NCBI RefSeq assembly: GCF_013373065.1
Contig: NZ_JABXIN010000002.1
Coordinates: 186,001 to 250,000 of the forward strand
DNA: 64,000 nt
Direction: 5' to 3'
Origin: Algoriphagus sp.
GTDB lineage: Bacteria > Bacteroidota > Bacteroidia > Cytophagales > Cyclobacteriaceae
Part shown: one piece after another, positions 34,955 through 49,781 of the stretch
Layout of the letters: each line of letters begins with the position of its first letter
Numbering within the stretch: position 1 is the stretch's first letter
Made by a program: the position numbers and the translations under genes
The notes under the pieces: generated by a model
What the model saw: only the letters and a program-made list of their open reading frames with translations
Databases searched by the model: none
Told to the model about the DNA's origin: nothing

Positions 34955-34960
34955 ATAAAT

Positions 34961-35680
34961 ATGATCACCTTTTTCCGCAAAATCCGCCAAAAACTCCTCT
35001 CCCAAAATCGGGTGACTAGGTACCTTGTTTATGCCATTGGCGAAATCATCCTTGTGGTGATCGGAATCCTAATTGCCTTACAGGTCAATAATTGGAATGA
35101 AGCCACAAAGCTGAAACGACAAGAAATTCAGTTACTCAAAGAGATGCTCACGGAGCTGAGGAAACAGCAACAAGATTTTATCTTCAATATCAACCACCAT
35201 AGGGAGGCCAAAGAAGCCTGTGAAATATTGCTACAGGCCTTAAGCAACGACCAGCCATACCATGATTCATTAGACATACACTTTTCCAGAAGTTACAATT
35301 TCACCATTTTAGATAATCAACAAAATGCTTTCGCTGCTTTGAAGAGCAAGGGCATTACCATGATCCAAAATGACAGTCTCCGGTTTTTAATTTCTGAATA
35401 CTACGACGTTCGAATGCCATTTCAGATAAAAATCCAAGAAGGCAGTATGAAGCAAGGGCTCGAAATCTCTCAAAGCCATCTAGGTTTATTTCAAAATTTT
35501 GCTTGGAATAAATCCATGGAACCTTGGGATTTTGAAGAACTGAAAAAAAATCGAGCCTACCTTTCATGGCTTAGCTTTACTGCCGACAACCGAGGTTTTG
35601 AAATGGAAAATTTTCAAACAACTCTTAAGCGGAACAGCGCATTAATCGCTTCAATAACTGAAGAGCTTAACCAAAAATAA
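34961..35680 (+). CDS. DUF6090 family membrane protein, copy 1
   Basis: This 239-residue protein has the shared FFRKIRQKLL basic anchor, RVTRYLVYAIGEIILV entering one membrane helix, and ALQVNNWNE at the exit. The rest is helical, with AFAALKSKGITMIQNDSLRF as its version of the family's central SG.L.li.nd.lr motif. From about residue 95 onward (YHDSLDIHFS, then MEPWDFEELKKN) it closely resembles the protein at 46925, which carries the other anchor type. It starts 6 bp after the molybdenum hydroxylase gene. Confidence 0.88.
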   Translation: MITFFRKIRQKLLSQNRVTRYLVYAIGEIILVVIGILIALQVNNWNEATKLKRQEIQLLKEMLTELRKQQQDFIFNINHHREAKEACEILLQALSNDQPYHDSLDIHFSRSYNFTILDNQQNAFAALKSKGITMIQNDSLRFLISEYYDVRMPFQIKIQEGSMKQGLEISQSHLGLFQNFAWNKSMEPWDFEELKKNRAYLSWLSFTADNRGFEMENFQTTLKRNSALIASITEELNQK

Positions 35681-36405
35681 TGATCTCACTTTTTAGAAAA
35701 ATCCGTCAAAAGCTTCTTCAGCAAAATCGAATCACTAGATACCTAGCCTATGCCCTAGGGGAAATACTATTGGTGATGGTGGGGATTTTACTGGCACTTC
35801 AGGTCAACAATTGGAATGAATACCAAAAGGAGCGAAAACTGGAACAAGTTTTCCTAAAAAAACTGGTGAAAGACCTGACCGATGATATTGTATTACTGGA
35901 AGGAATTATTCAGGAAGACTCGCTGATGTTCATTCGCCTTTCCCAAATGTCCGATGATATTTTGGAAGCAAATGATATTTCCGAAGTTGATATACGGGAT
36001 AATGCACTCTTTAAGGCGAACCTGTTTTACCCAAATAAGATCGCACTAGATAATATTACAGCCTCTGGACAAATCGGATTGATTCGTAATGATTCCTTGA
36101 TCAACAATCTGAGGGAATACTATCGATCCATAAAAATTTTCAATGAAGGAATCGATCAATCCCTAAAAAACTATAGCCGGGATATAGAAAATTTTGTCGT
36201 TGGATTCGACCATAGAAGAGAGCATCCTTCCTTGCCCAAAAAGACTTTAGAAGAATATAGAGAAAATCCTTTCTTCCTCAATTCCTTATATTTTAAGAAT
36301 GGCCTGTTGAAATTTCAGAAAGCCAACTATCAGTCCTTACGAAAAAAGGCAAGGGAAATTAGGGATTTGGCACAGTCGGAAATAAAAGCTTCCCTGAATA
36401 ATTAA
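35680..36405 (+). CDS. DUF6090 family membrane protein, copy 2
   Basis: This 241-residue member has the standard anchor (SLFRKIRQKLLQQNR), a helix slightly changed to LLVMVGILLALQ, and NNWNEYQKER. The central motif is ALDNITASGQIGLIRNDSL followed by REYYRSIKIF. Its C-terminal part is most like the protein at 46119. The ATG shares one base with the previous stop (TAATG), so translation is probably coupled. The C-terminal ~190 residues probably lie outside the inner membrane. Confidence 0.88.
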   Translation: MISLFRKIRQKLLQQNRITRYLAYALGEILLVMVGILLALQVNNWNEYQKERKLEQVFLKKLVKDLTDDIVLLEGIIQEDSLMFIRLSQMSDDILEANDISEVDIRDNALFKANLFYPNKIALDNITASGQIGLIRNDSLINNLREYYRSIKIFNEGIDQSLKNYSRDIENFVVGFDHRREHPSLPKKTLEEYRENPFFLNSLYFKNGLLKFQKANYQSLRKKAREIRDLAQSEIKASLNN

Positions 36406-36411
36406 TGCTGA

Positions 36412-38265
36412 ATGATGATGAAAAAGCTGCTTTTCCTTTTCCTGATTATTTACAGCCATATCGGATTCGCACAAGAATCAATAATCAAAACCTATTCCTA
36501 TTCGGAGTTTTTCAGATTGGTGGAAAACGAACCGGATTCTGTCTTTGAGCTCAAAAATGCCATCATAAAGATGGATTTGGAGGTTGATCAAGCGCATACC
36601 TTTGCCGGGGATACCGGATCAACCAAAAATTATACGCGTAAGGACTCCATAACCCTCACCAAAGAGATCAGACTTGAAAATGTTTTCTTTAATTCTTGGG
36701 GAATTGTTCAAGACAGTAGTATTCTATCTATAAGTCTTTACAAAATTCGGTTTTTAAAACCCGTAATCGTCAAAAATTCTTCATTGGGAGATGTCGACCG
36801 CTGTAGTTTTTTTGATGAGCTTCGAGTTTCCTTTGATGAGAATTTCTCAGGCATCTTTATGAAGGCTAAGGAATTGGAAAAGCAAAATTTTGCATATACC
36901 TCCATTGAAAATTCCTTATTCAAAAAGGGGATATTCTATAATACAGACAAAGCTGATCTATCAGATTTACAATGGGGCCTAATTTCTTGTGAAGTTTTGA
37001 ATTCTTCGAAAGACTTCATTGGCTCAGTATTTCAGGTTGAAAATCAATTCAATCTCTGGATAACCAACACCAAGTTTAGAGGATCAGGAGAGGAGGTTTT
37101 GATTAACGTTTCTTCTGTTCAGAGACTTGACTTTGACAAAAACAGCTTTGAAAATGTCAACCCAATCATCTTACTTGGAAGCAATGGTAAGGTAAACCGA
37201 ATGAACTTTAGTGAAAACCAATTTGACACAAGGGTAAAAATTAGCCTCGGTCAGTTGGAAGATGATTCCACCATCGATTGGAATCAATTTTCTTCCGGAC
37301 TTATTAATTATTTTTCTTATCAAACCTGGTTTGCTTACCTCAATTATTATCAGCTAGATTCCATAGCAACTTTTAAACAAGACCCAGATATATATTCTGA
37401 AAAAAATTTAGCCTATTATCAGAACACTGCCAGAATAGAAAACTCGAAAGTGTACAGGGGGGAGATGAAACTACTGGGTAAGCTTTATTCACTTTATCAG
37501 CAACAGCACGATACAGAATATGCAAACGGGACTTATGTTGAAATGAAAAATCTGGAAACATCCAGATTGGCTTATCTCTATCGTGTCAACCCTTCCTTTG
37601 AGACTTTTTTTACCTGGAAGATCAACCAATTTCTCAAGGTATTCTCTGAATACGGAACCAAACCCTCCAAGGCAATCGTATTCTCTGTCTATGTGATTTT
37701 TGCCTTTGCCCTGATTTACCTGTTCTTCCCCAATTCCTGGGATGCCCATGGCAAAAACCGAATCGTGGATCGCTATCGCTTTTTCTTCAAATACCTCCAG
37801 CGGAATGCCGGCGTACATGAGGTCTATCTGGAAGAAAAACAAAAGGATTTACTGGCCTATGAGGAATTCAGATCCATGATTTCGGATTCCGAGAAGTCCG
37901 TCCCCCGATTTTTCTCAGCAACTGCGCTCCCCCTCTATCGATGGGCGATCTCAGGCACCCAATTGAGCGCGAAAATTTTAAGCAAAATCGATATTCTAAA
38001 AGGTACCTGGGAGGAACTACCTCCTGCACAAAAAGCCTGGAAGTCTTTTCTCTTGACTGGGGCATTTCTGGTGGCGTTACTCTATGACTTTTTAATCAAA
38101 GTCCTCAATGCACTCATGCTCTCCATCAACACCTTTACCACCTTGGGTTTTGGAGAGATTCCCATCAAAGGATTGCCAAGATACCTTGCAATTATCCAGG
38201 GATTTATCGGCTGGTTTATGCTGACAATATTCTCTGTTTCCCTTATTTCTCAATTGCTGAACTGA
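36412..38265 (+). CDS. K+-channel-like membrane protein with large exported N-terminal domain
   Basis: This 617-residue protein begins with a signal peptide (to about FAQES), then ~380 residues with repeated short strands and Asn/Phe-rich blocks (ENSLFKKGIF, KNSFENVNPI, FSENQFD) that suggest a right-handed beta-helix or pentapeptide-like fold. A membrane helix follows near 422-440, another near 545-565, and then the pore segment with selectivity filter TTLGFGE at 576-582 and a last helix (592-612). The filter closely matches TVGYG/TLGFG potassium channels. It sits between DUF6090 genes with 6 and 1 bp gaps. Ion selectivity and gating ligand are unknown. Confidence 0.8.
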   Translation: MMMKKLLFLFLIIYSHIGFAQESIIKTYSYSEFFRLVENEPDSVFELKNAIIKMDLEVDQAHTFAGDTGSTKNYTRKDSITLTKEIRLENVFFNSWGIVQDSSILSISLYKIRFLKPVIVKNSSLGDVDRCSFFDELRVSFDENFSGIFMKAKELEKQNFAYTSIENSLFKKGIFYNTDKADLSDLQWGLISCEVLNSSKDFIGSVFQVENQFNLWITNTKFRGSGEEVLINVSSVQRLDFDKNSFENVNPIILLGSNGKVNRMNFSENQFDTRVKISLGQLEDDSTIDWNQFSSGLINYFSYQTWFAYLNYYQLDSIATFKQDPDIYSEKNLAYYQNTARIENSKVYRGEMKLLGKLYSLYQQQHDTEYANGTYVEMKNLETSRLAYLYRVNPSFETFFTWKINQFLKVFSEYGTKPSKAIVFSVYVIFAFALIYLFFPNSWDAHGKNRIVDRYRFFFKYLQRNAGVHEVYLEEKQKDLLAYEEFRSMISDSEKSVPRFFSATALPLYRWAISGTQLSAKILSKIDILKGTWEELPPAQKAWKSFLLTGAFLVALLYDFLIKVLNALMLSINTFTTLGFGEIPIKGLPRYLAIIQGFIGWFMLTIFSVSLISQLLN

Positions 38266-38266
38266 T

Positions 38267-39049
38267 ATGATCTCCCTTTTCAGAAAAATCCGACAAAAAC
38301 TCCTTTCCCAAAATCGAATCACGCGATACTTGGCTTATGCTCTAGGGGAAATATTGTTGGTAGTCATCGGAATTTTGATTGCGCTGCAAATCAATACCTG
38401 GAACCAGCAACGAATTGAAAATGAGGAGGAATTGGAAATCCTTTCTGGGCTAAAAGAAGAATTTGAAAATAATCTGGAGGAAATAAACTATAGTATCAAT
38501 ATTAACAAAAAAGTAACAGAGGACTGCTTGCAGCTCACTCAGATAATTCGATCTAATTCTATCGAAAATAATGCTGAACTTATAGATGATCTACTGGTGA
38601 AGATAGGCACATTCAATTCCTTTGATGCGCAAACAGGAGTTGCAAGCGAAATAGTCAATTCCGGGAAATTAAATCTTCTGAAAAATGACGCCCTACGCAC
38701 TCAAATAGTAAACTGGCTGACGCTCTTAGTTGATCAGGAGGAGGATATTCTTTTTAGATCAGACAACTATACCATGAATTTAATGCCATTTCTCATGAAG
38801 CGCTTTCCATTAGCAAATGGTGAACTCACCAAAAAACTCCCCTATGACAAGAAAGATTATCTTCAAACCTACCCAGATAAATCTCCTTTCAAGACCCAGC
38901 TCGCCAAAGCGGATTATTTAGAATTTGAAAATCAAATCTGGCACCACAAGCATAACAATGATTACGTTTCAGTCAACGAATTGAACATCAAAGATTTTAT
39001 CAACCTCACACTCAAAATGATTGAGGATGAATTGAATAGAAAAAAATAG
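38267..39049 (+). CDS. DUF6090 family membrane protein, copy 3
   Basis: This 260-residue member has the standard anchor and membrane helix ending IALQINTWNQQR. The central motif is ASEIVNSGKLNLLKNDALR followed by QIVNWLTLL, where Trp replaces the usual Tyr-Tyr. With the proteins at 40460 and 48477 it forms a subgroup sharing SGKL/SGKM, the W position and a later PFL(M/I)K block. The start is one base after the channel stop, tying the channel to the array. Confidence 0.88.
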   Translation: MISLFRKIRQKLLSQNRITRYLAYALGEILLVVIGILIALQINTWNQQRIENEEELEILSGLKEEFENNLEEINYSININKKVTEDCLQLTQIIRSNSIENNAELIDDLLVKIGTFNSFDAQTGVASEIVNSGKLNLLKNDALRTQIVNWLTLLVDQEEDILFRSDNYTMNLMPFLMKRFPLANGELTKKLPYDKKDYLQTYPDKSPFKTQLAKADYLEFENQIWHHKHNNDYVSVNELNIKDFINLTLKMIEDELNRKK

Positions 39050-39050
39050 A

Positions 39051-39110
39051 ATGATCTCATTTTTCCGAAAAATCCTCCAAAAGTATGAAACGTATCTACA
39101 ACGTTCTTAA
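39051..39110 (+). pseudogene. Remnant of a DUF6090 5' end
   Basis: The first 34 bp after the preceding gene read as a DUF6090 start ([11 protein letters not shown]) and then break exactly where the ATG of the next gene, of the other anchor type, begins (39085). Read on, the frame gives 19 residues and a stop. It cannot encode a functional paralog and looks like a recombination scar, although a leader peptide role cannot be excluded. Confidence 0.7.
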
Positions 39111-39783
39111 AGAAAAATGGCCTGAATATATCCTTGAGATTCTGGTGATTACCATCGGTATTTTGGGGGCCTTTGCGCTGAATAATTGGAATGAAAATCG
39201 AAAAGAGACCTCCTCAAGGAAGGAAATGCTCAATTCATACCGAAATGAGCTAACCGACAATATTGCTTTTTTAGAGAACCGAATTACTGCCAAAAATGAA
39301 CCGATATTGACCCGCCTGGAGGCATTCATACAGTCGAATATCGGAATGGAAAAGGATGATGCTGGAAGATGCATCGTGGATGTCTTATCTTTTCCCCCTT
39401 CGGTACCTGAGATATCTATACTGAATGAATTACTAAACTCGAACCTGTTTAAAAATCAGTTGGAGATCCTTGACCCATCTAGGAAACTAAAGCTGACAGT
39501 CAATCAGCTCGAAAATTCTGAAGATTTTCTAAATCAAAATTGGGTGAGTGAAGTCAGTCCATTTATAAATCAAAACAACCTAAATGTGATCAGCTACTCA
39601 GTTTTGCGGGATCTTCCTTATAGTTTGACAGATGAGCAGCTAGAAACAGTAAACTCTCCACAGTTCAAAAATCTAGCAGTTAACAAATTCTTCCTATTGT
39701 CCGACTGGATCGCGGTTCAAAAAACAGCCTTAGGCCAAATGAAGAAAATTTTAGAATTGGTAGAAGAAGAACTCGTGAAATGA
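39085..39783 (+). CDS. DUF6090-like membrane protein with KEKWPEY anchor, copy 1
   Basis: This 232-residue protein has the second anchor type: a short basic N-terminus with [19 protein letters not shown] leading into the single helix and [12 protein letters not shown] at the exit. The C-terminal region is helical with [20 protein letters not shown] in place of the central motif, so it is one of the more divergent members. It overlaps the next gene by 4 bp (ATGA). Confidence 0.83.
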
Positions 39784-40463
39784 AAAGAATCCTCTCTATA
39801 CTCAAAGAAAAATGGCCTGAATATATTCTTGAAATTCTGGTTATTACGATAGGTATTTTAGGAGCTTTCTCACTTAATAGCTGGAATGAAGCCCGAATAG
39901 CCTCTGAGTTTGAGGAAGAGATTCTTTCTCTGATCGATAAAAACCTGGAACAGGATGCTGTTCTTTTGTCCGAAGAGCTATCTAAAGCTAAACAAGCTAT
40001 TGAATTGACCGATCTCCTCCTTGAACAGGCAAATATTAATCCCTTAAATGATAGTCTTAATTTTTGGATGGGGAAAATAATTTCTTTCGAAAGATTTAAA
40101 TCTCAATCAAGCGCCTTTGAAGTTCTGAAATCAAAAGGGATTGAATCTATCAGTAATAAAAATCTGCAATTGTCCCTAATCTCCTACTATGATGTATCTC
40201 TTTTCGAGGTGGAAAGGGGTCTACAGGATGTTGAATATTCATTTGTAACTGACTGGACACCAGTCATCAAAGAGCATTTCAAAATTTTTCGCTGGATGAA
40301 TTACCATGAACCAACTGATCCTCAGACATTTTTTAAGACTCCTTCTCACATCGTTCTTTTTAAACTTTACAAGGACAATCGAGAAAGTTCGGTGAGGCAT
40401 ATTGAAAATGCTTTGGAAAAAATTCATGAGATCAGACACCAGATAAAACAGCAATTAAAATGA
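39780..40463 (+). CDS. DUF6090-like membrane protein with KEKWPEY anchor, copy 2
   Basis: This 227-residue protein has an anchor almost identical to the one before it ([20 protein letters not shown]), at both protein and DNA level, followed by [12 protein letters not shown]. The central motif reads [19 protein letters not shown] then [10 protein letters not shown], matching canonical DUF6090 proteins. It overlaps its neighbours on both sides by 4 bp, so the three genes are translationally coupled. Confidence 0.83.
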
Positions 40464-41254
40464 TCTCATTATTCCGAAAAATCCGCCAAAAGCTCCTATC
40501 CCAAAATCGGGTGACTAGGTACCTTGTATATGCCATCGGAGAAATCATCCTTGTGGTGATCGGGATATTGATTGCATTACAGGTCAATAATTGGAATGAA
40601 TACCGCAAAGACAGAATTGAGGAGCAGGAACTCTTAATCCAATTGGAATCCGAATTTCAAAGCAACTTAGAACAGCTGGATGAAAAAATCGATGTACGTA
40701 ATCATTTGATCCAATCTTCCATGAAACTACTGGAATTAATCGACAGCAAGAACCCAGTTTTGCCTGATACGATCATTTATTATACCAGTAAAACCATGAT
40801 CGCTCCCACTTTTGATCCGATTACCAATGACTTGATCTCAGCTGGAAAGCTGCAATTGTTGACCAATAAGCGCCTAAAGAATTTGCTGTCTCTCTGGACC
40901 AGTGAGGTTTTACAAGTGACAGAAGACGAATTGTCTTGGCGGTCAGTGATGAATAATCAGTATTTCCCCTTTTTAATTGAAAAATCTTCCCTTAGAAACC
41001 TGATTTCTGGCTATTGGTCTACGAATCAAATCAATAGTATCCTCTTGGATAAACAAAAACAAGTTCGTTTTTCAATATTGACTAATCAGGAGCTGGAAAA
41101 ATTACCCGAACTTCTTAAGGAAGACGACTTTGGAGATTACCTAGCAGATTGTGCCACTTGGAATACCATCATCAACAGCCAATCTGAAACCTTAAGAGAA
41201 CGGATTGTGGAGATTCTCACGCTGATCCAAGAAGACCTAAAATCCAGCAAATGA
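40460..41254 (+). CDS. DUF6090 family membrane protein, copy 4
   Basis: This 264-residue member has a 5' end almost identical at base level to copy 1 (SLFRKIRQKLLSQNRVTR, VYAIGEIILVV). The central motif is ITNDLISAGKLQLLTNKRL followed by SLWTSEV, then YFPFLIEKSSLRNLI, placing it in the SGKL/W subgroup with 38267 and 48477. Four-base overlaps lie on both sides. Confidence 0.88.
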   Translation: MISLFRKIRQKLLSQNRVTRYLVYAIGEIILVVIGILIALQVNNWNEYRKDRIEEQELLIQLESEFQSNLEQLDEKIDVRNHLIQSSMKLLELIDSKNPVLPDTIIYYTSKTMIAPTFDPITNDLISAGKLQLLTNKRLKNLLSLWTSEVLQVTEDELSWRSVMNNQYFPFLIEKSSLRNLISGYWSTNQINSILLDKQKQVRFSILTNQELEKLPELLKEDDFGDYLADCATWNTIINSQSETLRERIVEILTLIQEDLKSSK

Positions 41255-42294
41255 TACAGCTTTTTCGAAAAATCCGCCAAAAACTCCTTCATCAAAATCG
41301 GATTACCCGATATCTGGCCTATGCGCTGGGAGAAATCATCTTGGTGACCATCGGAATATTGATTGCTCTGCAAGTCAATAACTGGAATGAAGAAAAGAAG
41401 CGACAAGAGGAATTTGAAGTCACCATTGAGCAAATCTACAATGTCTTGGATGTGGAAATTCAAGAACTACTTTTTATCGAATTTCATTCTTCCCAACAAA
41501 ATATATACTTAGACAGCCTATATAACTATCCGGAACTTCTGGACCCTAACCTTCTCCCAGGACTATTGAATTATGAGGAATCAGAATCTAGCCCTTTCCG
41601 AACCAGCATCGGGTTTTTATTGCAAAACCTCAAAGTGAAGCCCGGAAATACTACTGAAATATTACTGGCAAGGGATCTTACTGAATATGCCTCTTTTGCC
41701 AATTTGGAATTTAATCGTTCGGAAAAACTCCTCAAAGAGCTGCTTTTAGTGGAAACCATCCCTACTCCCGATTTGACATTTGGAATTGCTTTAAATCAAA
41801 GATTTTTAGAAATGCCAGGCGTATTTAGCGAAGCTCAGATTCTGAAAAGTCAGGAAATGATTAGTCGACCAGAGGTCAGAGCAGCTTTGATCAAAGCTGC
41901 GGTCCTTCATGACAGCTATGCTGCTGAGGCTTTTCATATCCGCGAGCTTGGTGAAAAATTGAAAGGCGAAATCAAAAAACAATTCCCACAAGTCAAATTA
42001 CTTTATGAAAACCTAGGATTAGTGGGCGAAGGATCTCCGAATAGGGATTGGGGGACTGATATCCCCTTTGAAAAGAAGTCTGAGGAGCCCGCTATTTGGG
42101 AAGCGGAAATTGAATTGGTAGGAGGTCAGGTAAAATTCCGGGAAAACCAAACCTGGAACCGAAACTGGGGAGGCCGAAGCTTCCCTAAAGGGCACTTGGA
42201 ATGGCAAGGACCTAATATCCAAGTACCCGCAGGAAAATATCAGATTAACTTGAATCTGACGGAAAAGACCTACGAATTTATCCCTCTTGACTGA
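41251..42294 (+). CDS. DUF6090 protein fused to a SusE/SusF-like C-terminal domain
   Basis: At 347 residues this is the longest array member. The N-terminus is standard (QLFRKIRQKLLHQNR, YALGEIILVTIGILIALQ). The region equivalent to the central motif is weak. Residues ~283-347 form an added domain with GGQVKFRENQTWNRNWGG, then GPNIQVPAGKYQINLNLTEKTY, which strongly recalls the tandem C-terminal modules of SusE/SusF outer membrane starch-binding proteins. Such a domain would be expected outside the inner membrane, supporting an exported C-terminus for the family. It overlaps both neighbours (4 and 1 bp). Confidence 0.85.
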   Translation: MIQLFRKIRQKLLHQNRITRYLAYALGEIILVTIGILIALQVNNWNEEKKRQEEFEVTIEQIYNVLDVEIQELLFIEFHSSQQNIYLDSLYNYPELLDPNLLPGLLNYEESESSPFRTSIGFLLQNLKVKPGNTTEILLARDLTEYASFANLEFNRSEKLLKELLLVETIPTPDLTFGIALNQRFLEMPGVFSEAQILKSQEMISRPEVRAALIKAAVLHDSYAAEAFHIRELGEKLKGEIKKQFPQVKLLYENLGLVGEGSPNRDWGTDIPFEKKSEEPAIWEAEIELVGGQVKFRENQTWNRNWGGRSFPKGHLEWQGPNIQVPAGKYQINLNLTEKTYEFIPLD

Positions 42295-43034
42295 TGATCT
42301 CCTTCTTCCGAAAAATCCGCCAAAAACTACTTCAACAAAATCGGGTCAGCCGGTATTTAGCCTATGCGCTAGGGGAAATCCTGTTAGTTGTAATTGGAAT
42401 TTTGATTGCGCTACAGGTAAACAATTGGAATGAGAACTTAAAAATTCGGGAAAAGGAAAAATTATTCCTAGAAAGAATAAAGGAGGAAGCATTATGGAAT
42501 ATTGATATTTTGGATAATCAAATAAAAATATATCAACAGAATGCATCTAACCTAGATTCTGTTGCTTTTGCCTTAAACAATGACCTTCCCAAAAATGAAC
42601 ACCTGAGAATTCCTGCATCACCCTTTTTTATTAGTGCATGGAGACTGAGAAATTCGGCCTATACCGAGTTAGTATCTTCTGGTTCATTGGGTATTCTGTC
42701 TGATATTAAGTTGCGGGAAATACTAGATGAAGCGGCAAGCTTCCAGTCTATTACAATCCAGACACTCAATTACTGGAGAGACATGTCGGTTGCAGATATT
42801 AATCTTTTTCAGCCGTACAGAATTCAAGAAATCTTCATAACCAATGGTGATACAACCCAAAATATGAGTCTGGACTATGATCGTATGAAAGGGCAAAGTG
42901 AGGTAATCGCAGGAATACAGTTTTGGAGTCTAGCTAATCGAAAGTTTGCAGGAGGTATTTTAGAGTTTAGAGAGTATTTCCAAAATATTCTGGATCGAAT
43001 TGAGTGCCTGGAAAATAAAAATTGTCCCAATTGA
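42294..43034 (+). CDS. DUF6090 family membrane protein, copy 6
   Basis: This 246-residue member has the standard anchor (SFFRKIRQKLLQQNRVSR) and helix. The central motif is AYTELVSSGSLGILSDIKLR followed by EILDEAASF. RPYRIQEIFI-like and RKFAGGILEFREYF segments occur near the end. It shares one base with the preceding stop (TGATG). The C-terminal two thirds show no close match within the window. Confidence 0.87.
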   Translation: MISFFRKIRQKLLQQNRVSRYLAYALGEILLVVIGILIALQVNNWNENLKIREKEKLFLERIKEEALWNIDILDNQIKIYQQNASNLDSVAFALNNDLPKNEHLRIPASPFFISAWRLRNSAYTELVSSGSLGILSDIKLREILDEAASFQSITIQTLNYWRDMSVADINLFQPYRIQEIFITNGDTTQNMSLDYDRMKGQSEVIAGIQFWSLANRKFAGGILEFREYFQNILDRIECLENKNCPN

Positions 43035-43038
43035 TATC

Positions 43039-43815
43039 ATGATCTCCTTTTTCCGAAAAATCCGCCAAAAACTCCTCCAGCAAAATCGGATCACCCGATA
43101 CCTGGCCTATGCTTTAGGGGAAATCATTTTAGTAGTCCTTGGGATATTAATTGCTTTACAGATCAATACCTGGAATGAATTCCGTAAAAGTAAAACCCTT
43201 GAAAACGATTACTACTGCAAACTCATGGAAGATGTCAGCCTAGACATCTTACAAATCCAAAATCTGATTGAACAAACTCAAATACGACTTCAAGCGAGTA
43301 ATGACCTGCTTTCCTTGCTTCAAAAGGATTCCTTGGACAGACCCCTGATCATGGAAAAAAATCTGGAATCCATTTCCTTGATTACCTATACCTACCGTCC
43401 CAGCATGGCGGCCTATGAAGACCTAAAATCCAGCGGAAACCTGAATATTCTCCGAGACAATGATATAAAAACCATGATCGTCGATTACTACTCCATGATC
43501 GATGGAATGCTGGATGTGATCAATACCAATGCCGACGGTGCGGTTCAGCTTTTCTATAAGAAAGACAACTATGCAGCCATCCAATGGCAGGACATGGACT
43601 TTGTAAAAAACAATCTGGATACCAGCAAAGTAGATCTCAAAAAGTTGGAATCGTTTCATTTAACCGACCGGGAGTTTGTGGAGAAATTAACGAGTGATGC
43701 GGTATATTATGTGGGTGCCAACTCCAGAATATTATTTCTCTACGAATCCATCCTCCCGGATATCATCCAAGCGAAAAATGAATTAGAAAAAAAATGTAAT
43801 TCTAAGTCACCATGA
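43039..43815 (+). CDS. DUF6090 family membrane protein, copy 7
   Basis: This 258-residue member uses the ATG before ISFFRKIRQKL; the frame is open 13 codons further upstream but that part overlaps the previous gene and breaks the family pattern. The helix ends IALQINTWNEFRK. The central motif is AYEDLKSSGNLNILRDNDIK followed by DYYSMIDGML, a textbook example. It overlaps the truncated copy that follows by 4 bp. Confidence 0.88.
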   Translation: MISFFRKIRQKLLQQNRITRYLAYALGEIILVVLGILIALQINTWNEFRKSKTLENDYYCKLMEDVSLDILQIQNLIEQTQIRLQASNDLLSLLQKDSLDRPLIMEKNLESISLITYTYRPSMAAYEDLKSSGNLNILRDNDIKTMIVDYYSMIDGMLDVINTNADGAVQLFYKKDNYAAIQWQDMDFVKNNLDTSKVDLKKLESFHLTDREFVEKLTSDAVYYVGANSRILFLYESILPDIIQAKNELEKKCNSKSP

Positions 43816-43917
43816 TCTCCTTCTTCCGCAAAATCCGCCAAAAACTCCTCCAGCAAAATCGGGTAAGCCGGTATTTGGCTTATTCCGCAGGGGAAATTGC
43901 CTCGGCGATGATTGGTA
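43812..43917 (+). pseudogene. Truncated DUF6090 gene interrupted at an IS200-like element
   Basis: The first ~35 codons match the family (SFFRKIRQKLLQQNRVSR, YLAYSAGEIA..MIG), then homology ends a few bases before the inverted repeat at 43925. The frame continues as unrelated sequence to 44000. The missing remainder is not found beyond the element, where a complete DUF6090 gene begins at 44568. The copy is therefore a fragment left by insertion plus deletion or recombination. Confidence 0.8.
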
Positions 43918-43924
43918 ATGGCAG

Positions 43925-43953
43925 TCCCTTTAGGGGCTCGATATGGGTAGAAC
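43925..43953. repeat. Left outer inverted repeat of the IS200-like element
   Basis: TCCCTTTAGGGGCT..ATATGGGTAGAA is the reverse complement of 44518-44546 at 25 of 29 positions. The CCCTTTAGGG core is itself nearly palindromic and could fold as a recognition hairpin for the transposase. Confidence 0.75.
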
Positions 43954-44010
43954 AAACAATTTTAACAAGCCCCCTACGTGCCTTTAGGTACGGAATATAA
44001 ATTTTTAACT

Positions 44011-44472
44011 ATGGCAAACACCTATACCCAAATCCATATTCAAGTGGTCTTTGCAGTCCAAAACCGCATTTCTCTAATCCAAGCTGACTGGAAAGATGAA
44101 CTTTATAAATACATTACCGGAATAGTCCAAAAACATAATCATAAGGTATTGCAAGTCAACGGTATGCCTGATCATATCCATATATTGATGGGGTTCAGGC
44201 CTACCCAAGCATTATCAGATTTAATGCAAATGGCAAAGGAAGATTCATCAAAATGGATAAATACCAAAGGTTTTGTCAAAGGAAAATTCTCTTGGCAATC
44301 TGGATATGGCGCGTTTTCCTATTCAAAAGTTCAGGTACCAAGAGTGATCAAATACATTCAGGATCAGGAAAAGAATCACTCGCAAAAATCTTTCATTGAA
44401 GAATATGAAGAGCTTCTTAAGATTCATGATGTGGAATATGATCAACGTTACATTTTCAAATCGATCGAATGA
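44011..44472 (+). CDS. tnpA: IS200/IS605-family TnpA transposase
   Basis: This 153-residue HUH endonuclease has His55-Ile-His57 in MPDHIHILMGF as the metal-binding pair and Tyr115 in VIKYIQDQEKNH as the likely catalytic tyrosine; FSWQSGYGAFSYS is a further conserved block. Start taken at the ATG before ANTYTQIHIQVVF, the family N-terminus. All key residues are present, so the enzyme may be active. No tnpB is present. Confidence 0.93.
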   Translation: MANTYTQIHIQVVFAVQNRISLIQADWKDELYKYITGIVQKHNHKVLQVNGMPDHIHILMGFRPTQALSDLMQMAKEDSSKWINTKGFVKGKFSWQSGYGAFSYSKVQVPRVIKYIQDQEKNHSQKSFIEEYEELLKIHDVEYDQRYIFKSIE

Positions 44473-44517
44473 TTATATCCTGTACCTAACGGCACAGCAC
44501 ATTGATTTTAAATGTCA

Positions 44518-44546
44518 TTTCTACCCATATATAGTCCCTAAAGGGA
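44518..44546. repeat. Right outer inverted repeat of the IS200-like element
   Basis: This is the reverse complement of 43925-43953 with four mismatches and contains the hairpin TCCCTAAAGGGA. It ends 21 bp before the ATG of the next DUF6090 gene. Confidence 0.75.
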
Positions 44547-44567
44547 TAAAATAAAGAAAATAACTCT

Positions 44568-45371
44568 ATGATCTCCTTCTTCCGAAAAATCCGCCAAAAA
44601 CTCCTTCAGCAAAATCGGATCACTCGATACCTGACTTATGCAGTTGGGGAGATTATTTTAGTAACCCTGGGTATTTTAATTGCTTTGCAAATGAATACCT
44701 GGAAGGAAGAAAGACAACATCACCTTAGCGAACAGACCTTCTACAAGACCATTCTGGATGACTTAGGAAATGATCAAAAAAAGCTGGAGCAACTTACCAA
44801 GTTTTACAACAGCCGAATTGAAAACCTAAGGTGGTTGCTCACTCATGTAAGGAATCCAAATCTTGGAGTAAGTGGTGTCGAATTTGGAACCCATACCGAA
44901 CCGCTTTATTACAACGAGTCGGCGATCAGCTTTGATGCTACCTATGAAGCAGCAAAAAGTGGAGGAGCCTTTGAAAATTTTTCCAACAAAGAGCTCCTTA
45001 AAAAACTCGTGGAGTACTATTCCAATTTTAAGCAGATAGAAGATGTAATGACCTCAACTGTCCGTTTTTTGGAGTCATCCTTTGAGCCGCTAATGGCATC
45101 AGTTCCTAATGATTTTTTAAATTCAGAAACATCTGAACATGTAATTACCAGCGAAGGAAACAAAGGGTTTTATTCTTTTTTGGATTCCATTCCAGATCAG
45201 CGCAAGATTGATACACAAAGGGAACTCGATGCCTTTTTACAAAAAACAGAGTTTGAGTCCTATCTTATTGGAGATCTAGGCAGGTCTTTCAATATGTCGA
45301 ACGTTTTGAAAGTCCGTTCAGCTCAAATAAAGTCCCTTCAAGAAGAAATCAAATCATTTATCCATGACTAG
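44568..45371 (+). CDS. DUF6090 family membrane protein, copy 8
   Basis: This 267-residue member starts shortly after the IS200-like element. The anchor is standard (SFFRKIRQKLLQQNRITR), the helix reads GEIILVTLGILIALQMNTW. The central motif ATYEAAKSGGAFENFSNKEL then EYYSNFKQIE is a looser version. Because the element lies directly upstream, this gene may depend on a promoter within it. It overlaps the next gene by 8 bp. Confidence 0.87.
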   Translation: MISFFRKIRQKLLQQNRITRYLTYAVGEIILVTLGILIALQMNTWKEERQHHLSEQTFYKTILDDLGNDQKKLEQLTKFYNSRIENLRWLLTHVRNPNLGVSGVEFGTHTEPLYYNESAISFDATYEAAKSGGAFENFSNKELLKKLVEYYSNFKQIEDVMTSTVRFLESSFEPLMASVPNDFLNSETSEHVITSEGNKGFYSFLDSIPDQRKIDTQRELDAFLQKTEFESYLIGDLGRSFNMSNVLKVRSAQIKSLQEEIKSFIHD

Positions 45372-46119
45372 TTTTTTCAGAAAACTCCGCCAAAATCTCC
45401 TTTCCCAAAATCGGGTCACTCGATATTTAGCCTATGCAATCGGAGAAATCTTGCTGGTAGTAATCGGGATACTAATTGCGCTGCAAGTCAACAATTGGAA
45501 CCAAGAACGCCTCGCAAAAATGAAAGCTAAAAGCTATCATGAGCGAATTATTGAAGATCTTGACATTTTCATAGACGAAACCGAAGGGTCAATTCGTCGT
45601 TCGTCATCAATCCGGAAAATAATCCTTCAGACCATTGATATGCTAGAAGCAAAAGAGCTACCTGAAGACAAAATCGGTGCTTTTGAAAGAACGATGCATC
45701 TGTACTATCAAGTACCCTACCGAAACCCTTCAATTTCGACCATTACAGAAATGAGAAGTAACGGAGAGCTTGAGCTAATGCAGAACCTTGATTTAAGAAA
45801 AAGGCTCATACAATTTGAGCAAGAAATCCTTTCAACCGATGAAATCTTGGTAGGTATGGGAAACCATGCCAGCCAACCCGTATTCTATATCGAACAATAC
45901 ATCCGTTCCATTCCAGACACCAATTCTGTTTCGAATGATTGGATAGAAGTAGGGATACAGGCAGATTTTGAAGCAATGGCTAATGATGAAAAAGTAGCCA
46001 ATTTTCTCTCCAAATTTTCTGTACAATGGTCTCACCACATGATGTTCTCTCGAAGATTAAATCAATCTGCCATACAATTGAGGGATGAATTGATACAAGA
46101 CCTAGATGCCCTAAAGTAA
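45364..46119 (+). CDS. DUF6090 family membrane protein, copy 9
   Basis: This 251-residue member begins TSFFRKLRQNLLSQNRVTR, a mild variant of the anchor, with GEILLVVIGILIALQVNNW as helix. The central motif is TITEMRSNGELELMQNLDLR. RLIQFEQEIL replaces the usual Tyr-Tyr end. Its stop shares one base with the next ATG. Little similarity to other members is visible after the helix except the motif. Confidence 0.87.
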   Translation: MTSFFRKLRQNLLSQNRVTRYLAYAIGEILLVVIGILIALQVNNWNQERLAKMKAKSYHERIIEDLDIFIDETEGSIRRSSSIRKIILQTIDMLEAKELPEDKIGAFERTMHLYYQVPYRNPSISTITEMRSNGELELMQNLDLRKRLIQFEQEILSTDEILVGMGNHASQPVFYIEQYIRSIPDTNSVSNDWIEVGIQADFEAMANDEKVANFLSKFSVQWSHHMMFSRRLNQSAIQLRDELIQDLDALK

Positions 46120-46919
46120 TGATCTCCTTCTTCCGTAAAATCCGCCAAAAACTCCTTTCCCAAAATCGGGTCACCCGATATCTGGTATATGCCTTAGGCG
46201 AAATTTTTTTAGTGGTCATCGGAATTCTAATCGCTCTTCAGGTCAACATCTGGAATGAAAACAGAAAGGATCGGGCTTTGGAAAAAAATTACCTCTTAGG
46301 GATTGCAGAAAACCTGGACAGTGATATTAAAGAATTAGAAAGACTCATTGTTGATGATAGCCTCCTTCTAAATGGATACACCAACTTAGTCAGGGCCTTT
46401 TCCGATAAGGCATACAAATCAAACCCAAAAGCATTAATTGAGACCATTTTTAAAATCCAACTGGTAAACTCCTACGAAGGAAACCATATCGTATTTGATG
46501 ATTTGAATTCTTCTGGTAGTACCTACCTCGTCCAATCCGATTCGTTACGCTACCATCTTTTGGAATATTACAATCAAAGTGAGGTCTTAATTACCTCTGA
46601 ACAGGAATTGCACAATCCGGGTATTTTGGAGCTGAGAAAGGAACTCTTCATCACCGATGAAGTGGGCATCAATGGCTTGGAACGACTCTTTTTCCCTCCC
46701 TATTGGGCCTCAGATTTAGATCCCAGCTTACCGATTACTACTTTTTTGGAATTTTTGGATGAAGACATCCACTCTTCAAAAGTACAGGGATTCGCCAATC
46801 GGGCGGGTTATATCAAAGCTTTGACTTTAGCGAAAAGAATAGATAGAATTCGACTTTTAAAAAGTGCCTTGACGCTTCGAGAAGAAATCCAGGGATTTTT
46901 ATTATTTTCTAAAAATTAA
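46119..46919 (+). CDS. DUF6090 family membrane protein, copy 10
   Basis: This 266-residue member has the standard anchor and GEIFLVVIGILIALQVNIW as helix. The central motif is VFDDLNSSGSTYLVQSDSLR followed by LLEYYNQSEVL. The C-terminal part resembles copy 2 (35680) in the LEKNYLLGIAENLDSDIKEL and VDDSLLL segments. It is followed after 5 bp by the third KEKWPEY-type protein. Confidence 0.87.
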   Translation: MISFFRKIRQKLLSQNRVTRYLVYALGEIFLVVIGILIALQVNIWNENRKDRALEKNYLLGIAENLDSDIKELERLIVDDSLLLNGYTNLVRAFSDKAYKSNPKALIETIFKIQLVNSYEGNHIVFDDLNSSGSTYLVQSDSLRYHLLEYYNQSEVLITSEQELHNPGILELRKELFITDEVGINGLERLFFPPYWASDLDPSLPITTFLEFLDEDIHSSKVQGFANRAGYIKALTLAKRIDRIRLLKSALTLREEIQGFLLFSKN

Positions 46920-46924
46920 CCTAA

Positions 46925-47650
46925 ATGAAACGAATCCTATCCATCCTCAAAGAAAAATGGCCGGAATACTTCTTTGAGATTTTGGTACTAATCATCGGTA
47001 TCTATGGGGCTTTTGAGCTGTCAAACTACGGAGAGAACAAAGCTAGAAAACGAGCGGAAATTGAAATCCTCAAAGGCTGCAAAACGGAACTGATGACCGA
47101 TCTGGAGGAAATCAAATTCAACATGAATGAACTCAGGAAAAGCCAGACCGCCCTAAACCTAATCCTTGAAGTTTTAGAAAATGACGGATCCTACCATGAT
47201 TCTCTGGCTTTTCACTTCAATTATACTCTTATCCCTATTCATTTCGTCCACTCGACCAGCTCCTTCGAGACCGCAAAATCAAGGGGCTTGGACATCATTT
47301 CCAACAATGATATCCGAAATAAGCTGATCGCTGTTTATGATTCCCAATATGATTTTTTCCTAAAAGCTGAGCAAGAAGAAATTGCTGAAGTGCAATACCA
47401 AATGAGGCATATACTTCCGGGTCGCTTTGTATCAGGACATAATTTTGAGGGGAAGGATAATACTTTTGACGGAAGTATGGTTCCCAAAGATTTTGAATCC
47501 CTCAAAACTGATCAGGAGTACCATTATTTTATCAAGACCCAACAAAACCGGACTAGATCTTTTTTGGGGTACTTTTATACCAATCTCCAAAAATCAGTAG
47601 AGTCCATGATACACGATTTAGAGGTAGAATTGAAAAGAATCGACAGATAA
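46925..47650 (+). CDS. DUF6090-like membrane protein with KEKWPEY anchor, copy 3
   Basis: This 241-residue protein has the second anchor ([20 protein letters not shown]) but a C-terminal region close to copy 1 at 34961: NDGSYHDSLAFHFN, SFETAKSRGLDIISNNDIR and PKDFESLKTDQEY each have a counterpart there. The anchor and the rest of the protein thus have different closest relatives, which points to exchange of 5' ends between paralogs. Confidence 0.83.
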   Translation: MKRILSILKEKWPEYFFEILVLIIGIYGAFELSNYGENKARKRAEIEILKGCKTELMTDLEEIKFNMNELRKSQTALNLILEVLENDGSYHDSLAFHFNYTLIPIHFVHSTSSFETAKSRGLDIISNNDIRNKLIAVYDSQYDFFLKAEQEEIAEVQYQMRHILPGRFVSGHNFEGKDNTFDGSMVPKDFESLKTDQEYHYFIKTQQNRTRSFLGYFYTNLQKSVESMIHDLEVELKRIDR

Positions 47651-47677
47651 TGACAACCCTATTCATCCACTGATTAT

Positions 47678-48463
47678 ATGATCTCCTTCTTTCGAAAAAT
47701 CCGCCAAAATCTCCTTTCCCAAAATCGGGTCACCCGATACCTGGTATATGCCTTGGGCGAAATTTTTTTAGTTGTTATCGGAATTTTGATTGCACTTCAG
47801 GTGAATAATTGGAATGAAAACCGTCTCGAGCGGCAACTTGAAAAAAAGTATCTCCATGGGCTTCAACGAGATCTAAATCGGGATATTGAAGGCCTCGATC
47901 GGATGACAAACAATCGAAAAGACATCATCAATTCTGCCCTGAAAGTCATGAAAATGAATACTCCAAGTACCCTGGAGGAGCTTCGGGAAGTCAATGATGA
48001 ATTTTTGATGATCCATTTTTGGTATGAGTTCACCCCGAATAACAATACCTTCAATGAATTGACCAGTTCGGGAAATTTAAGCCTAATCAGAAACGACACG
48101 ATCAAAGATCTTCTCATGTCTATGGAAATTTTAAATGCTGAAATTGTCCAAAACAGAAACCACATGCGAAGAGACTATGACCACTATATCTATGATGAGT
48201 TGGCTAATTATGAGTGGCTCCCATTAATCAACTTGGATACCTTGGGAAAGACTAATCGGCTAATTCCCATAGAGGAGGTAAGTGAAGATCGACTTAGAAA
48301 TCTGAATCGAGAAGCCGGAGAAATCATGAATAACAAAGTGATTCGAAACGGGTGGATCTTAGCTATTGCAAATAATGCCTATATGTTGGATCTGTACAAA
48401 GAAATGCGGAAGCAGAATGCCCGATTACAGGATTTAATAGAAAGAGAGCTTCAGGGCTTATGA
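47678..48463 (+). CDS. DUF6090 family membrane protein, copy 11
   Basis: This 261-residue member begins SFFRKIRQNLLSQNRVTR, almost identical in DNA to copy 10, with NNWNENRLERQ after the helix. The central motif NTFNELTSSGNLSLIRNDTIK is canonical, then the protein becomes Asn- and Arg-rich (NRNHMRRDYDHYIYDEL). It lies 27 bp after the previous stop, one of the larger gaps in the array. Confidence 0.88.
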   Translation: MISFFRKIRQNLLSQNRVTRYLVYALGEIFLVVIGILIALQVNNWNENRLERQLEKKYLHGLQRDLNRDIEGLDRMTNNRKDIINSALKVMKMNTPSTLEELREVNDEFLMIHFWYEFTPNNNTFNELTSSGNLSLIRNDTIKDLLMSMEILNAEIVQNRNHMRRDYDHYIYDELANYEWLPLINLDTLGKTNRLIPIEEVSEDRLRNLNREAGEIMNNKVIRNGWILAIANNAYMLDLYKEMRKQNARLQDLIERELQGL

Positions 48464-48476
48464 TAGAGATATACAT

Positions 48477-49217
48477 ATGATTTCATTTTTCAGAAAAATC
48501 CGCCAAAAACTACTCTCGCAAGACCGAATAACCCGATACTTGACCTATGCCGTTGGCGAAATATTTTTAGTGGTACTTGGAATCCTAATCGCCTTGCAAA
48601 TCAATACCTGGAATGATCAACGCATCAATAGGATCAAGGAACGGGCAACTCTTAATGACCTGCATTTGGAGTTTCAGAAAAACAAGCAAAAACTTGACTC
48701 CACCATCACCTATCATAAGGCCATACTTGAAGCTATTCAAGAAGTCATGAGTTTAATGAATGAGCCGGAATCCAGCCTAACCAATCAACCTGTAGACAGT
48801 CTCATCTACCTCTCCATCGATTATTTCGACTATAACCCAAGTCAATCTGTCATTTCCGAACTGATTTCCTCTGGAAAAATGAATCTGATTTCTTCAGATT
48901 CTTTGCGCATCCTAATCTTTGATTGGGTGAGTGAAATAGACGAAAAAACAGAAGGCTATGATACCATGGATGAAATCAGTCAAACTCAAACCCTTCCCTA
49001 CCTAACCAAAAAGGGATCGATGAAAAACATTGACTATAATGGACTCGGGAGAGTAAACGGCCGGTCCAAATTTGGCTTTCAAAATCATAGTTTATTTCAA
49101 GATTTGGAATTCGAAAACCACATGGACAATCAGTTTTGGGCGGTTAGCAATTACTTGCTCAAGCTTGAGCGACTCAAAGAAATCGTAGAGGCCACCTTGG
49201 AGAGAACCAAGCCCTAA
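48477..49217 (+). CDS. DUF6090 family membrane protein, copy 12 (end of array)
   Basis: This 246-residue member has anchor SFFRKIRQKLLSQDRITR and helix ending IALQINTWNDQR. The central motif is VISELISSGKMNLISSDSLR followed by FDWVSEIDE, and TLPYLTKKGSMKNI follows, placing it in the subgroup with 38267 and 40460. It is the last gene before a 564-bp gap. Confidence 0.88.
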   Translation: MISFFRKIRQKLLSQDRITRYLTYAVGEIFLVVLGILIALQINTWNDQRINRIKERATLNDLHLEFQKNKQKLDSTITYHKAILEAIQEVMSLMNEPESSLTNQPVDSLIYLSIDYFDYNPSQSVISELISSGKMNLISSDSLRILIFDWVSEIDEKTEGYDTMDEISQTQTLPYLTKKGSMKNIDYNGLGRVNGRSKFGFQNHSLFQDLEFENHMDNQFWAVSNYLLKLERLKEIVEATLERTKP

Positions 49218-49781
49218 AACCCCAATAGAAGCAGGAGTATTCATAAACTTTTTATTAAAAATTTTAGATAGTAGAAAGCCTTAAATTTTTACAGGAAAAT
49301 GAATAGAAATTTACTTCTAAGTGATTTGTATTCATTGGATTAAACTTTCAAAATTTCGAGTAAATCCTATTGTAAATAGAAGAGGGATTTGTATTTTAGA
49401 AAGAAGAAATTTTAGCTAAAACAGATCTAAATTTCTCATTGCAGAAAAATTTTGGATTAAAAGGCAAGTCTCCTTTCCAAGCTTACTCTGTTAATATCTA
49501 CCCAAAAAATCCCAGAAGGGGATTTTAATTAAGCTTCTTTTGATTTTTTATGAATCTAAGATTGCGCTTGGTAAGGCATAATGCTATTAATCTGGATTTC
49601 CAGATTTCTCTCCCATGAAATCTTCCATGCCTGAAAATCAAAGTGTCTAACTAAGTATGGGAAAAGCATCACTATGGAAGATTCCAAATCAAAGCATGAT
49701 TAAATTACCATTTATCTATACAACTTATTCTTTTTACAATCTTCCCGAGCTAGTACCTCCTCGCTCCCAATTTTCCAAAAT
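49218..49781. other. 564-bp AT-rich intergenic region
   Basis: This gap ends the packed array and precedes the histidine kinase gene, so it should contain the array's transcription end and the kinase promoter. I see no clear hairpin-plus-T terminator, no RNA gene and no convincing coding frame. Confidence 0.5.

What the first reader, a model, noticed from the sequence alone, without database searches (positions are those of the whole stretch)
34961..49217. Dense array of DUF6090 membrane proteins with invariant 5' ends and divergent C-termini
Seen: twelve intact genes share a nearly identical first ~48 codons (FFRKIRQKLL, GEI..V.IGILIALQ, NNWNE), while the remaining ~190 codons are strongly diverged except for a central SG.L.li.nd.lr..yy motif. 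Most junctions overlap by 1-8 bp. Known: DUF6090 has no assigned function to my knowledge. Inference: the conserved end is either kept by gene conversion or serves assembly with a shared partner, and the exported helical part is the variable, recognising part. This is the best candidate here for an undescribed system.
Basis: partly seen in the sequence, partly recalled or inferred. Interest (0 to 1): 0.85.

Follow-up and report, generated by a model that had tools for sequence, protein, structure and literature searches.

The report
Membrane-protein gene array with exchangeable bodies
A bacterium carries a tight row of related membrane-protein genes whose shared first 145 or so bases look like a joint at which whole gene bodies are lost, gained and swapped between relatives; how it evolves is fairly clear, what the proteins do is still unknown.

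Summary
In detail: 12 intact DUF6090-type genes (plus 3 with another N-end, 1 truncated) share ~48 codons and little else. Codons 2-24 keep synonymous sites (0.64 identical, 0.37 expected); codons 25-48 are conserved mainly as protein (0.43 vs 0.36); bodies are saturated. The 5' end behaves as a recombination seam. Against a sister genome, four large indels have their junctions in 5' ends, and these ends differ 4.5 times more than bodies (57/1440 vs 57/6519). In Algoriphagus, synonymous linkage of the seam to its own body is small up to codon 48 and steps up at codon 49; 238 of 263 left and 185 of 271 right interior homology-block ends lie in seams; one body carries either N-end type; some bodies look transferred between species. 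I conclude that bodies are gained, lost and swapped by recombination inside an in-frame membrane-anchor sequence. Bodies are under purifying selection (dN/dS 0.08-0.20); the one well modelled is a helical bundle (pLDDT 95). Function is inferred only. Closest known kinds: S. aureus lpl clusters, Rhs tip displacement.

The parts
34961..35680 (+). g01, MIS-type DUF6090 gene; this unit is absent from sister genome G066
35680..36405 (+). g02, MIS-type DUF6090 gene (body cluster c18)
36412..38265 (+). cargo gene: membrane protein with Ion_trans_2 pore, between g02 and g03
38267..39049 (+). g03, MIS-type (body c04, in 7 genomes with changing neighbours)
39051..39083 (+). orphan copy of the first ~33 nt of the seam; at this point G066 has ~3.1 kb more (a DUF6090 gene, a truncated copy, a histidine kinase by motif)
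39085..39783 (+). k04, K-type N-end ([11 protein letters not shown])
39780..40463 (+). k05, K-type N-end on body c00, which has an N-type (MIS-like) N-end in 12 other genomes
40460..41254 (+). g06, MIS-type; unit absent from G066
41251..42294 (+). g07, MIS-type with a C-terminal extension; nt 6-76 differ as a tract between G000 and G066
42294..43034 (+). g08, MIS-type (c11)
43039..43815 (+). g09, MIS-type (c31); the G066 copy has a 21-nt in-frame insert in the seam
43812..43977 (+). psi10, truncated copy (conserved for roughly its first 85-90 nt, right edge not fixed); with the next part one unit absent from G066
43978..44472 (+). Y1 (IS200-like) transposase gene inside the psi10 unit (open from GTG 43978; ATG at 44011)
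44568..45371 (+). g11, MIS-type (c03)
45364..46119 (+). g12, MIS-type (c07); nt 57-120 differ as a tract between G000 and G066
46119..46919 (+). g13, MIS-type (c19)
46925..47650 (+). k14, K-type N-end (c02)
47678..48463 (+). g15, MIS-type (c12)
48477..49217 (+). g16, MIS-type (c01); structure predicted

Best explanation
The array is a tandem paralog cluster that works as an open set of exchangeable units. Each unit is one gene body plus the start of the next gene. The first ~145 nt of each gene (or ~100 nt in the K-type) encode a short amphipathic helix and the single membrane anchor; because this stretch is alike in all copies, homologous recombination between two copies joins the upstream part of one unit to the body of another, in frame. 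Repeated crossovers and conversions delete, insert and replace whole bodies and carry bystander genes along. Shown by comparison: indels with seam junctions, tract-like replacement in the seam, near-loss of linkage between seam and body, the two N-end types on one body. Inferred from similarity: passage of bodies between Algoriphagus species. Inferred without test: that general (RecA-type) recombination does it, and N-in/C-out topology. Inferred and weak (about 0.3): the bodies are inner-membrane-anchored periplasmic helical bundles that bind different ligands or partners, displayed on a common anchor.
For: Sister genome G066, same array: the 4 large indels that break the alignment all have their junctions in 5' ends. 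In 10 MIS-type ortholog pairs the first 144 nt differ at 57/1440 sites and bodies at 57/6519. 165 ortholog pairs (three sister-genome pairs and same-upstream pairs removed): codons 25-36 synonymous identity 0.369 (interval 0.338-0.402, baseline 0.339), 45-48 0.656 (baseline 0.638), then 0.597 vs 0.435 at codons 49-56 and 0.532 vs 0.272 at 57-64. When only the upstream body is shared (92 pairs) the 30 nt before the start are 0.615 identical vs 0.302, and codons 13-24 are at baseline. Interior block ends in seams: 238/263 left, 185/271 right, seams being 19% of array length, 29 loci. Body c00 has a K-type N-end in 2 genomes and the other type in 12. A same-site 21-nt insertion in the seam sits on six different bodies. 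Some bodies are more alike than flanking genes, e.g. G022-G047 c08 0.91 vs 0.41-0.46 synonymous identity. Orphan or truncated seam copies in many arrays. Structure of g16: pLDDT 95, pTM 0.84, long N-terminal helix and bundle.
Against: The excess of seam divergence is not in every genome pair: N-end vs body dS 0.133/0.034 (G000-G066) and 0.850/0.322 (G022-G047, 2 gene pairs), but 0.224/0.205 (G038-G060) and 0.271/0.243 (G050-G052). Five of the ten G000-G066 pairs have 0 or 1 seam difference, so the Fisher test (p 6e-15) rests on a few tracts, not independent sites. G066 is a draft of 460 contigs, 85% complete; misassembly at 145-nt repeats could imitate some of its swaps. No donor for the replaced tracts was found in either array. 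Orthologs are slightly above baseline at codons 2-6 (0.553 vs 0.459) and 37-44 (0.429, interval 0.380-0.487, vs 0.373); pairs sharing only the upstream body are slightly above it at codons 25-48 as well (0.368 vs 0.337; 0.486 vs 0.432). Block ends fall at seams partly because genes are units; ends in bodies occur (6 left, 40 right in both genomes). Codons 7-12 are conserved genus-wide (0.70 between unrelated copies), which exchange alone need not explain. In other arrays the 5' excess can be small or absent (L039 0.519 vs 0.552 expected). Function: no family hit beyond DUF6090 and no decisive fold match.
Confidence: 0.8

Rival explanations
1. Ordinary tandem duplication with protein-level purifying selection on the membrane anchor; bodies simply diverged fast, and no special exchange is needed.
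For: Codons 25-48 are conserved as protein while their synonymous sites are near saturation; N-end dN/dS about 0.1 in G000-G066 and G038-G060.
Against: It does not explain synonymous conservation in codons 2-24, the replaced tracts and unit indels, or why seam codons of orthologs are more diverged at synonymous sites than the adjoining body codons.
Confidence: 0.08
2. The first ~60 nt, with the core AAAATCCGCCAAAA, are a cis-acting DNA or RNA element (a site for a recombinase or regulator, or a translation-coupling element), and exchange is site-specific rather than general.
For: Codons 7-10 are the strongest synonymous stretch across unrelated copies (AAA in 130 of 136 genes, ATC in 115, CGC in 101, CAA in 111); the pattern CGNAAAATCCGNCAAAANCT occurs 9 times in the genome, all in this array; the junction before k04 falls in a 10-bp identical run.
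Against: Replaced tracts end at many places, up to nt 120; no Rfam family matches; many arrays of other genera have other codons there; the 9 occurrences are simply 9 of the array's own copies; codon 24 (TAT in 123 of 136) is conserved as strongly without being part of the core.
Confidence: 0.15
3. Functional rival: the bodies are immunity or exclusion proteins against many toxins or phages, i.e. a homogeneous polyimmunity-like locus.
For: Tandem paralogs with content that differs between relatives, as described for polyimmunity loci in PMC3482391 (passages).
Against: Best E-values over the 12 proteins are 0.0079 (NCBIfam), 0.0066 (PADLOC) and 0.018 (PHROGs), each in 1 to 3 of 12 members and of unrelated kinds; bodies under purifying selection; I recognised no toxin gene among the neighbours listed, but ran no toxin search.
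Confidence: 0.25
4. Functional rival: the bodies are extracytoplasmic sensor heads for histidine kinases encoded in or beside the arrays.
Confidence: 0.25

Closest known systems
Staphylococcus aureus lpl (lipoprotein-like) tandem paralog cluster
   Same: Tandem paralogs in which a highly conserved stretch next to variable regions is thought to allow shuffling, duplication and diversification (PMC4470592, passages; [quoted passage not shown] that paper is not held, and was not seen).
   Different: There the conserved region is intragenic with 5'- and 3'-variable regions and the proteins have a lipobox; here the conserved stretch is the 5' end, codes for a membrane anchor without lipobox, lies in mostly overlapping or abutting genes, comes in two types, and some bodies seem to cross species.
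Rhs genes with displaced C-terminal tips
   Same: Core and C-terminus are evolutionarily decoupled, with displacement of C-termini proposed to run by homologous recombination (PMC2935791, abstract).
   Different: Rhs loci show arrays of tips dissociated from the core; here each intact body keeps its own start and anchor, and the orphans are 5' ends without bodies.
Homogeneous polyimmunity loci
   Same: Runs of diverged paralogs with content differing between strains (PMC3482391, passages).
   Different: No toxin partner known; no conserved N-terminal seam is described in the passages seen.
DUF6090 (PF19578)
   Same: 10 of 12 intact genes over the cut-off.
   Different: The Pfam matches start at residue 28 in the MIS-type genes scanned, so the first 27 codons, the part with the strongest nucleotide conservation, lie outside the model.

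Membership tests
DUF6090 (PF19578) | score over the curated cut-off (23.5 bits) | tested here: met
   10 of 12 intact MIS-type genes over it, g12 and g13 at 22.0 and 22.2 bits; of the K-type, k04 24.1 over, k14 14.7 below, k05 not listed
lpl-type tandem paralog cluster (as a way of evolving) | tandem paralogs; conserved stretch next to variable parts; shuffling at that stretch | tested here: met
lpl-type tandem paralog cluster (as a protein family) | lipobox signal sequence | tested here: not met
   no cysteine in the first 48 residues of the 12 MIS-type genes (alignment)
Rhs core/tip system | one core with an array of tips dissociated from it | tested here: not met
   each of the 15 intact family genes of the window has its own start and N-end
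Integron cassette array | integrase and attC sites | not tested
   no search for integrases or attC sites was made; the only transposase-like gene I recognised inside the window array is the Y1 gene
Polyimmunity locus | paralogs neutralise toxins | not testable with these tools
   profile searches gave no immunity family
4-helix-bundle extracytoplasmic sensor domain | fold match well above unrelated bundles | tested here: inconclusive

The most novel reading that the evidence does not exclude
Bacteroidota hold an integron-like gene-exchange platform, with no integrase seen so far (none was searched for): a coding seam that encodes a membrane anchor serves as a universal in-frame joint, so that any periplasmic body, and bystander genes such as kinases, channels or enzymes, can be plugged into a translation-coupled operon and traded between species. 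The strongly conserved core in codons 7-10 could be its dedicated recombination or control site.
Probability: 0.3. Interest if true: 0.85.

Novelty: new variant of a known kind. Interest (0 to 1): 0.62.

Why it matters
It turns a protein family of unknown function, for which the held library gave no paper (terms DUF6090 and PF19578), into a testable case of modular gene evolution: the conserved end is the place where genes are swapped, so copy number and content of such arrays should be read as an exchangeable repertoire. It also warns that conserved 5' ends can mislead gene trees and orthology calls in these genomes.

Tried and rejected
Plain tandem duplication with slow 5' ends was rejected because, between sister genomes, 5' ends differ more than bodies. 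Carriage by plasmids or phages: no match for the DNA 34961-36405 in plasmids nor for the g16 protein in plasmids or phages; other members were not tried. Known RNA element: none in 34800-49900 at gathering scores. Solved relatives by sequence: best E 0.14, to an unrelated protein. The fold search gave no Foldseek match at E <= 0.001; sensor domains were neither established nor excluded. Donors of the replaced tracts: not found in either array. The model of g07 was too poor to use (mean pLDDT 43.5 from two sequences), so its weak C-terminal hits to SusF_SusE (E 0.1) and to a chain named SGBPdex (E 0.044) were not pursued. A channel-array link was looked at: the channel occurs in 6 of 72 genus genomes, too few to conclude. 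Histidine kinase as a general partner was weakened because 10 of the 11 nearby kinases are from Algoriphagus. Excess dS in the seam was not reproduced in two of the four informative genome pairs; in the fifth it was saturated. The odds of the best explanation went from 0.82 to 0.80 because G066 is a fragmented draft.
Full report
WHERE IT IS. The window is bases 186001-250000 of contig C5 of a 3.65-Mb genome. The array 34961-49217 holds 12 intact genes with the [11 protein letters not shown]-end (g01-g03, g06-g09, g11-g13, g15, g16), three with another N-end, [11 protein letters not shown] (k04, k05, k14), a truncated copy with a Y1 transposase gene (psi10), a channel gene, and an orphan ~33-nt copy of the 5' end before k04. 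Eight of 13 direct junctions between family members overlap by 1-8 bp. Over the Algoriphagus loci 79 of 197 same-strand gaps between family genes are zero or negative, 53 of them exactly -4. Ten further members were found elsewhere in this genome; none has the array's exact start and five begin MIKFFR.

WHAT THE 5' CONSERVATION IS. In a codon alignment of the 12 genes I counted, wherever two genes have the same amino acid, how often the codon is the same, against codon usage. Codons 2-24: 0.64 vs 0.37 expected; 25-48: 0.43 vs 0.36; bodies: 0.35 vs 0.38. Between unrelated copies in different genomes (2000 sampled pairs of 132 genes) codons 2-24 still show 0.515 vs 0.37, strongest at codons 7-10, AAA ATC CGC CAA (codon 24, TAT, is another strong one). 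In 28 loci of this and other genera with five or more such genes, bodies are close to expectation and the first 24 codons exceed it in 27 of 28, often by little.

SISTER GENOME. G066 (its contig C26 has the length of JABXHZ010000020.1, MAG HF-Dia38) carries the same array. The alignment breaks into blocks at 93-99% identity with four large differences: g01 absent, g06 absent, the psi10/transposase unit absent, and ~3.1 kb extra in G066 where the window has the orphan 5' end. The junctions of all four lie in 5' ends. At the fourth, the window sequence reads as the start of G066's extra gene joined to the orphan, with the switch inside a 10-bp identical run. Which state is older was not determined. 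In the ten MIS-type genes shared by both, the first 144 nt differ at 57 of 1440 sites, bodies at 57 of 6519. The differences form tracts: g07 nt 6-76, g09 12-69, g12 57-120 (plus nt 22), and k05 39-101 among the K-type; five of the ten have 0 or 1. Donors were not found in either array. G066 is a draft in 460 contigs, so misassembly at repeats could account for part of this.

GENUS. Forty-three of 72 genus genomes have a relative of this type at E <= 1e-15. I used 43 loci from 24 of them; they give 240 full genes, distant relatives and members outside arrays included. Bodies cluster (single linkage, >= 45% identity, >= 70% coverage) into 49 groups of two or more and 60 singletons, in strongly different orders. 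Body c00 is joined to a K-type N-end in G000 and G066 and to the other type in 12 genomes. In five pairs of loci, homology blocks mostly begin at a gene start and end about 130-150 nt into the next gene, or about 90-100 nt when that gene is K-type. Over 29 loci (matches of 450 bp or more; seam = 60 nt before the start to 165, K-type 120, nt after it), 238 of 263 left and 185 of 271 right interior block ends lie in a seam in both genomes; ends outside the array (181 and 173) were set aside; seams make up 19% of array length. Part of this follows simply from genes being units.

LINKAGE TEST. For 165 ortholog pairs (24 clusters; the pairs G000-G066, G038-G060, G050-G052 and pairs with the same upstream body removed), synonymous identity is 0.553 at codons 2-6 (baseline 0.459), 0.746 at 7-12 (0.698), 0.456 at 13-24 (0.442), 0.369 at 25-36 (0.339), 0.429 at 37-44 (0.373), 0.656 at 45-48 (0.638), then 0.597 at 49-56 (0.435), 0.532 at 57-64 (0.272) and 0.597 at 65-80 (0.418). 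Orthologous bodies thus carry 5' ends only slightly more alike than those of unrelated copies, with a step where protein conservation ends. The small excess at codons 2-6 and 37-44 I do not explain. From the other side, 92 pairs sharing only the upstream body are 0.615 identical over the 30 nt before the start (baseline 0.302) and 0.557 at codons 2-6 (0.456), at baseline in codons 13-24, and a little above it at 25-36 (0.368 vs 0.337) and 37-48 (0.486 vs 0.432). Seven pairs sharing both neighbours are alike throughout, but may owe this to closely related genomes, since only G000-G066 was excluded there.

MORE MARKERS. A 21-nt in-frame, REP-like insertion at the same place in the seam (about codons 15/16) sits on c10, c45, c31, c25 and two singletons, while c10, c31 and c25 exist without it elsewhere; similar inserts sit at other points of the seam in G048 and G001, so repeated insertion is not excluded. 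Of 29 hits to the 5'-end probe that were not starts of listed full genes I count 25 as orphan or truncated seams; they occur inside and at the ends of arrays, and two of them are fused in frame before an amidohydrolase-like gene (L094, L130; the name is my reading) (set aside: one cut by a contig end, one gene start with an early stop, two in L094, which was not screened for genes). In G001 the same flanking oxidoreductase gene is followed by a decayed copy only, in G004 by none in the stretch held. Some bodies are far more alike than flanking genes of the same genome pair: synonymous identity 0.91 vs 0.41-0.46 (c08, G022-G047), 0.88 vs 0.50 (c08, G044-G058), 0.82 vs 0.40-0.45 (c04, G000-G022); others, such as c00 between G000 and G050 (0.34), are not. 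I read this as transfer between species for some bodies.

NEIGHBOURS. Histidine kinases (by motif) are over-represented next to family genes, 11 of 58 large ORFs vs 17 of 406, some overlapping them by 4 or 8 bp; but 10 of the 11 are from Algoriphagus, so I treat them as frequent cargo or partner candidates. The window's own neighbour 49782-53072 has Reg_prop, Y_Y_Y, HisKA and HATPase_c domains. The family is patchy in the phylum: 59 of 392 sampled genomes, 38 of 178 genera.

CONCLUSION. The way of evolving is well supported: exchange of gene bodies at an in-frame anchor-coding seam. It resembles known tandem paralog clusters (lpl; PMC4470592, passages) and Rhs tip displacement (PMC2935791, abstract), but with the seam at the gene start, in two types, in mostly overlapping or abutting genes, and with bodies that seem to cross species. 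The molecular function is open. Searches for DUF6090 and PF19578 in the held papers found none.

Noticed in passing
window 43978-44472: A Y1 (IS200-like) transposase gene lies in a truncated family copy, flanked by an imperfect inverted repeat (CCCTTTAGGG...CCCTAAAGGG); similar genes sit beside truncated copies in G058 (L120) and G074 (L119).
   Followed up: partly
window 36412-38265; G000 contigs C12, C23, C33, C36: The channel gene has eight further matches (some partial) in this genome but is found in only 6 of 72 genus genomes; on C12 copies lie on both sides of two DUF6090 genes.
   Followed up: partly
window 30733-31452 and 31454-32197: Two distant relatives (E 1e-8 and 7e-8 with the array profile) with another N-end precede the array on the other side of an oxidoreductase gene pair and have relatives near arrays in other genomes.
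   Followed up: partly
window 41986-42291: The C-terminal extension of g07 resembles SusF_SusE and a PDB chain named SGBPdex only weakly (E 0.1 and 0.044); two other long members (L092, L039) have weak DUF3471 matches at their C-terminus.
   Followed up: partly
seams of G050, G052, G066, G048, G072 genes: A 21-nt REP-like palindromic insertion at about codons 15/16 of the seam, on six different bodies.
   Followed up: partly
L094:8543, L130:1903: An amidohydrolase-like gene starts with about 12 codons of the DUF6090 5' end fused in frame to its signal peptide.
   Followed up: no
G200 (unnamed, same class): 93 first-look candidates for DUF6090 (8 scored) in one 4.1-Mb genome, the largest number among the genomes listed.
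   Followed up: no
L045, L056, L103: Relatives on contigs labelled Gammaproteobacteria or Lysobacterales MAG; mis-binning or transfer, not resolved.
   Followed up: no
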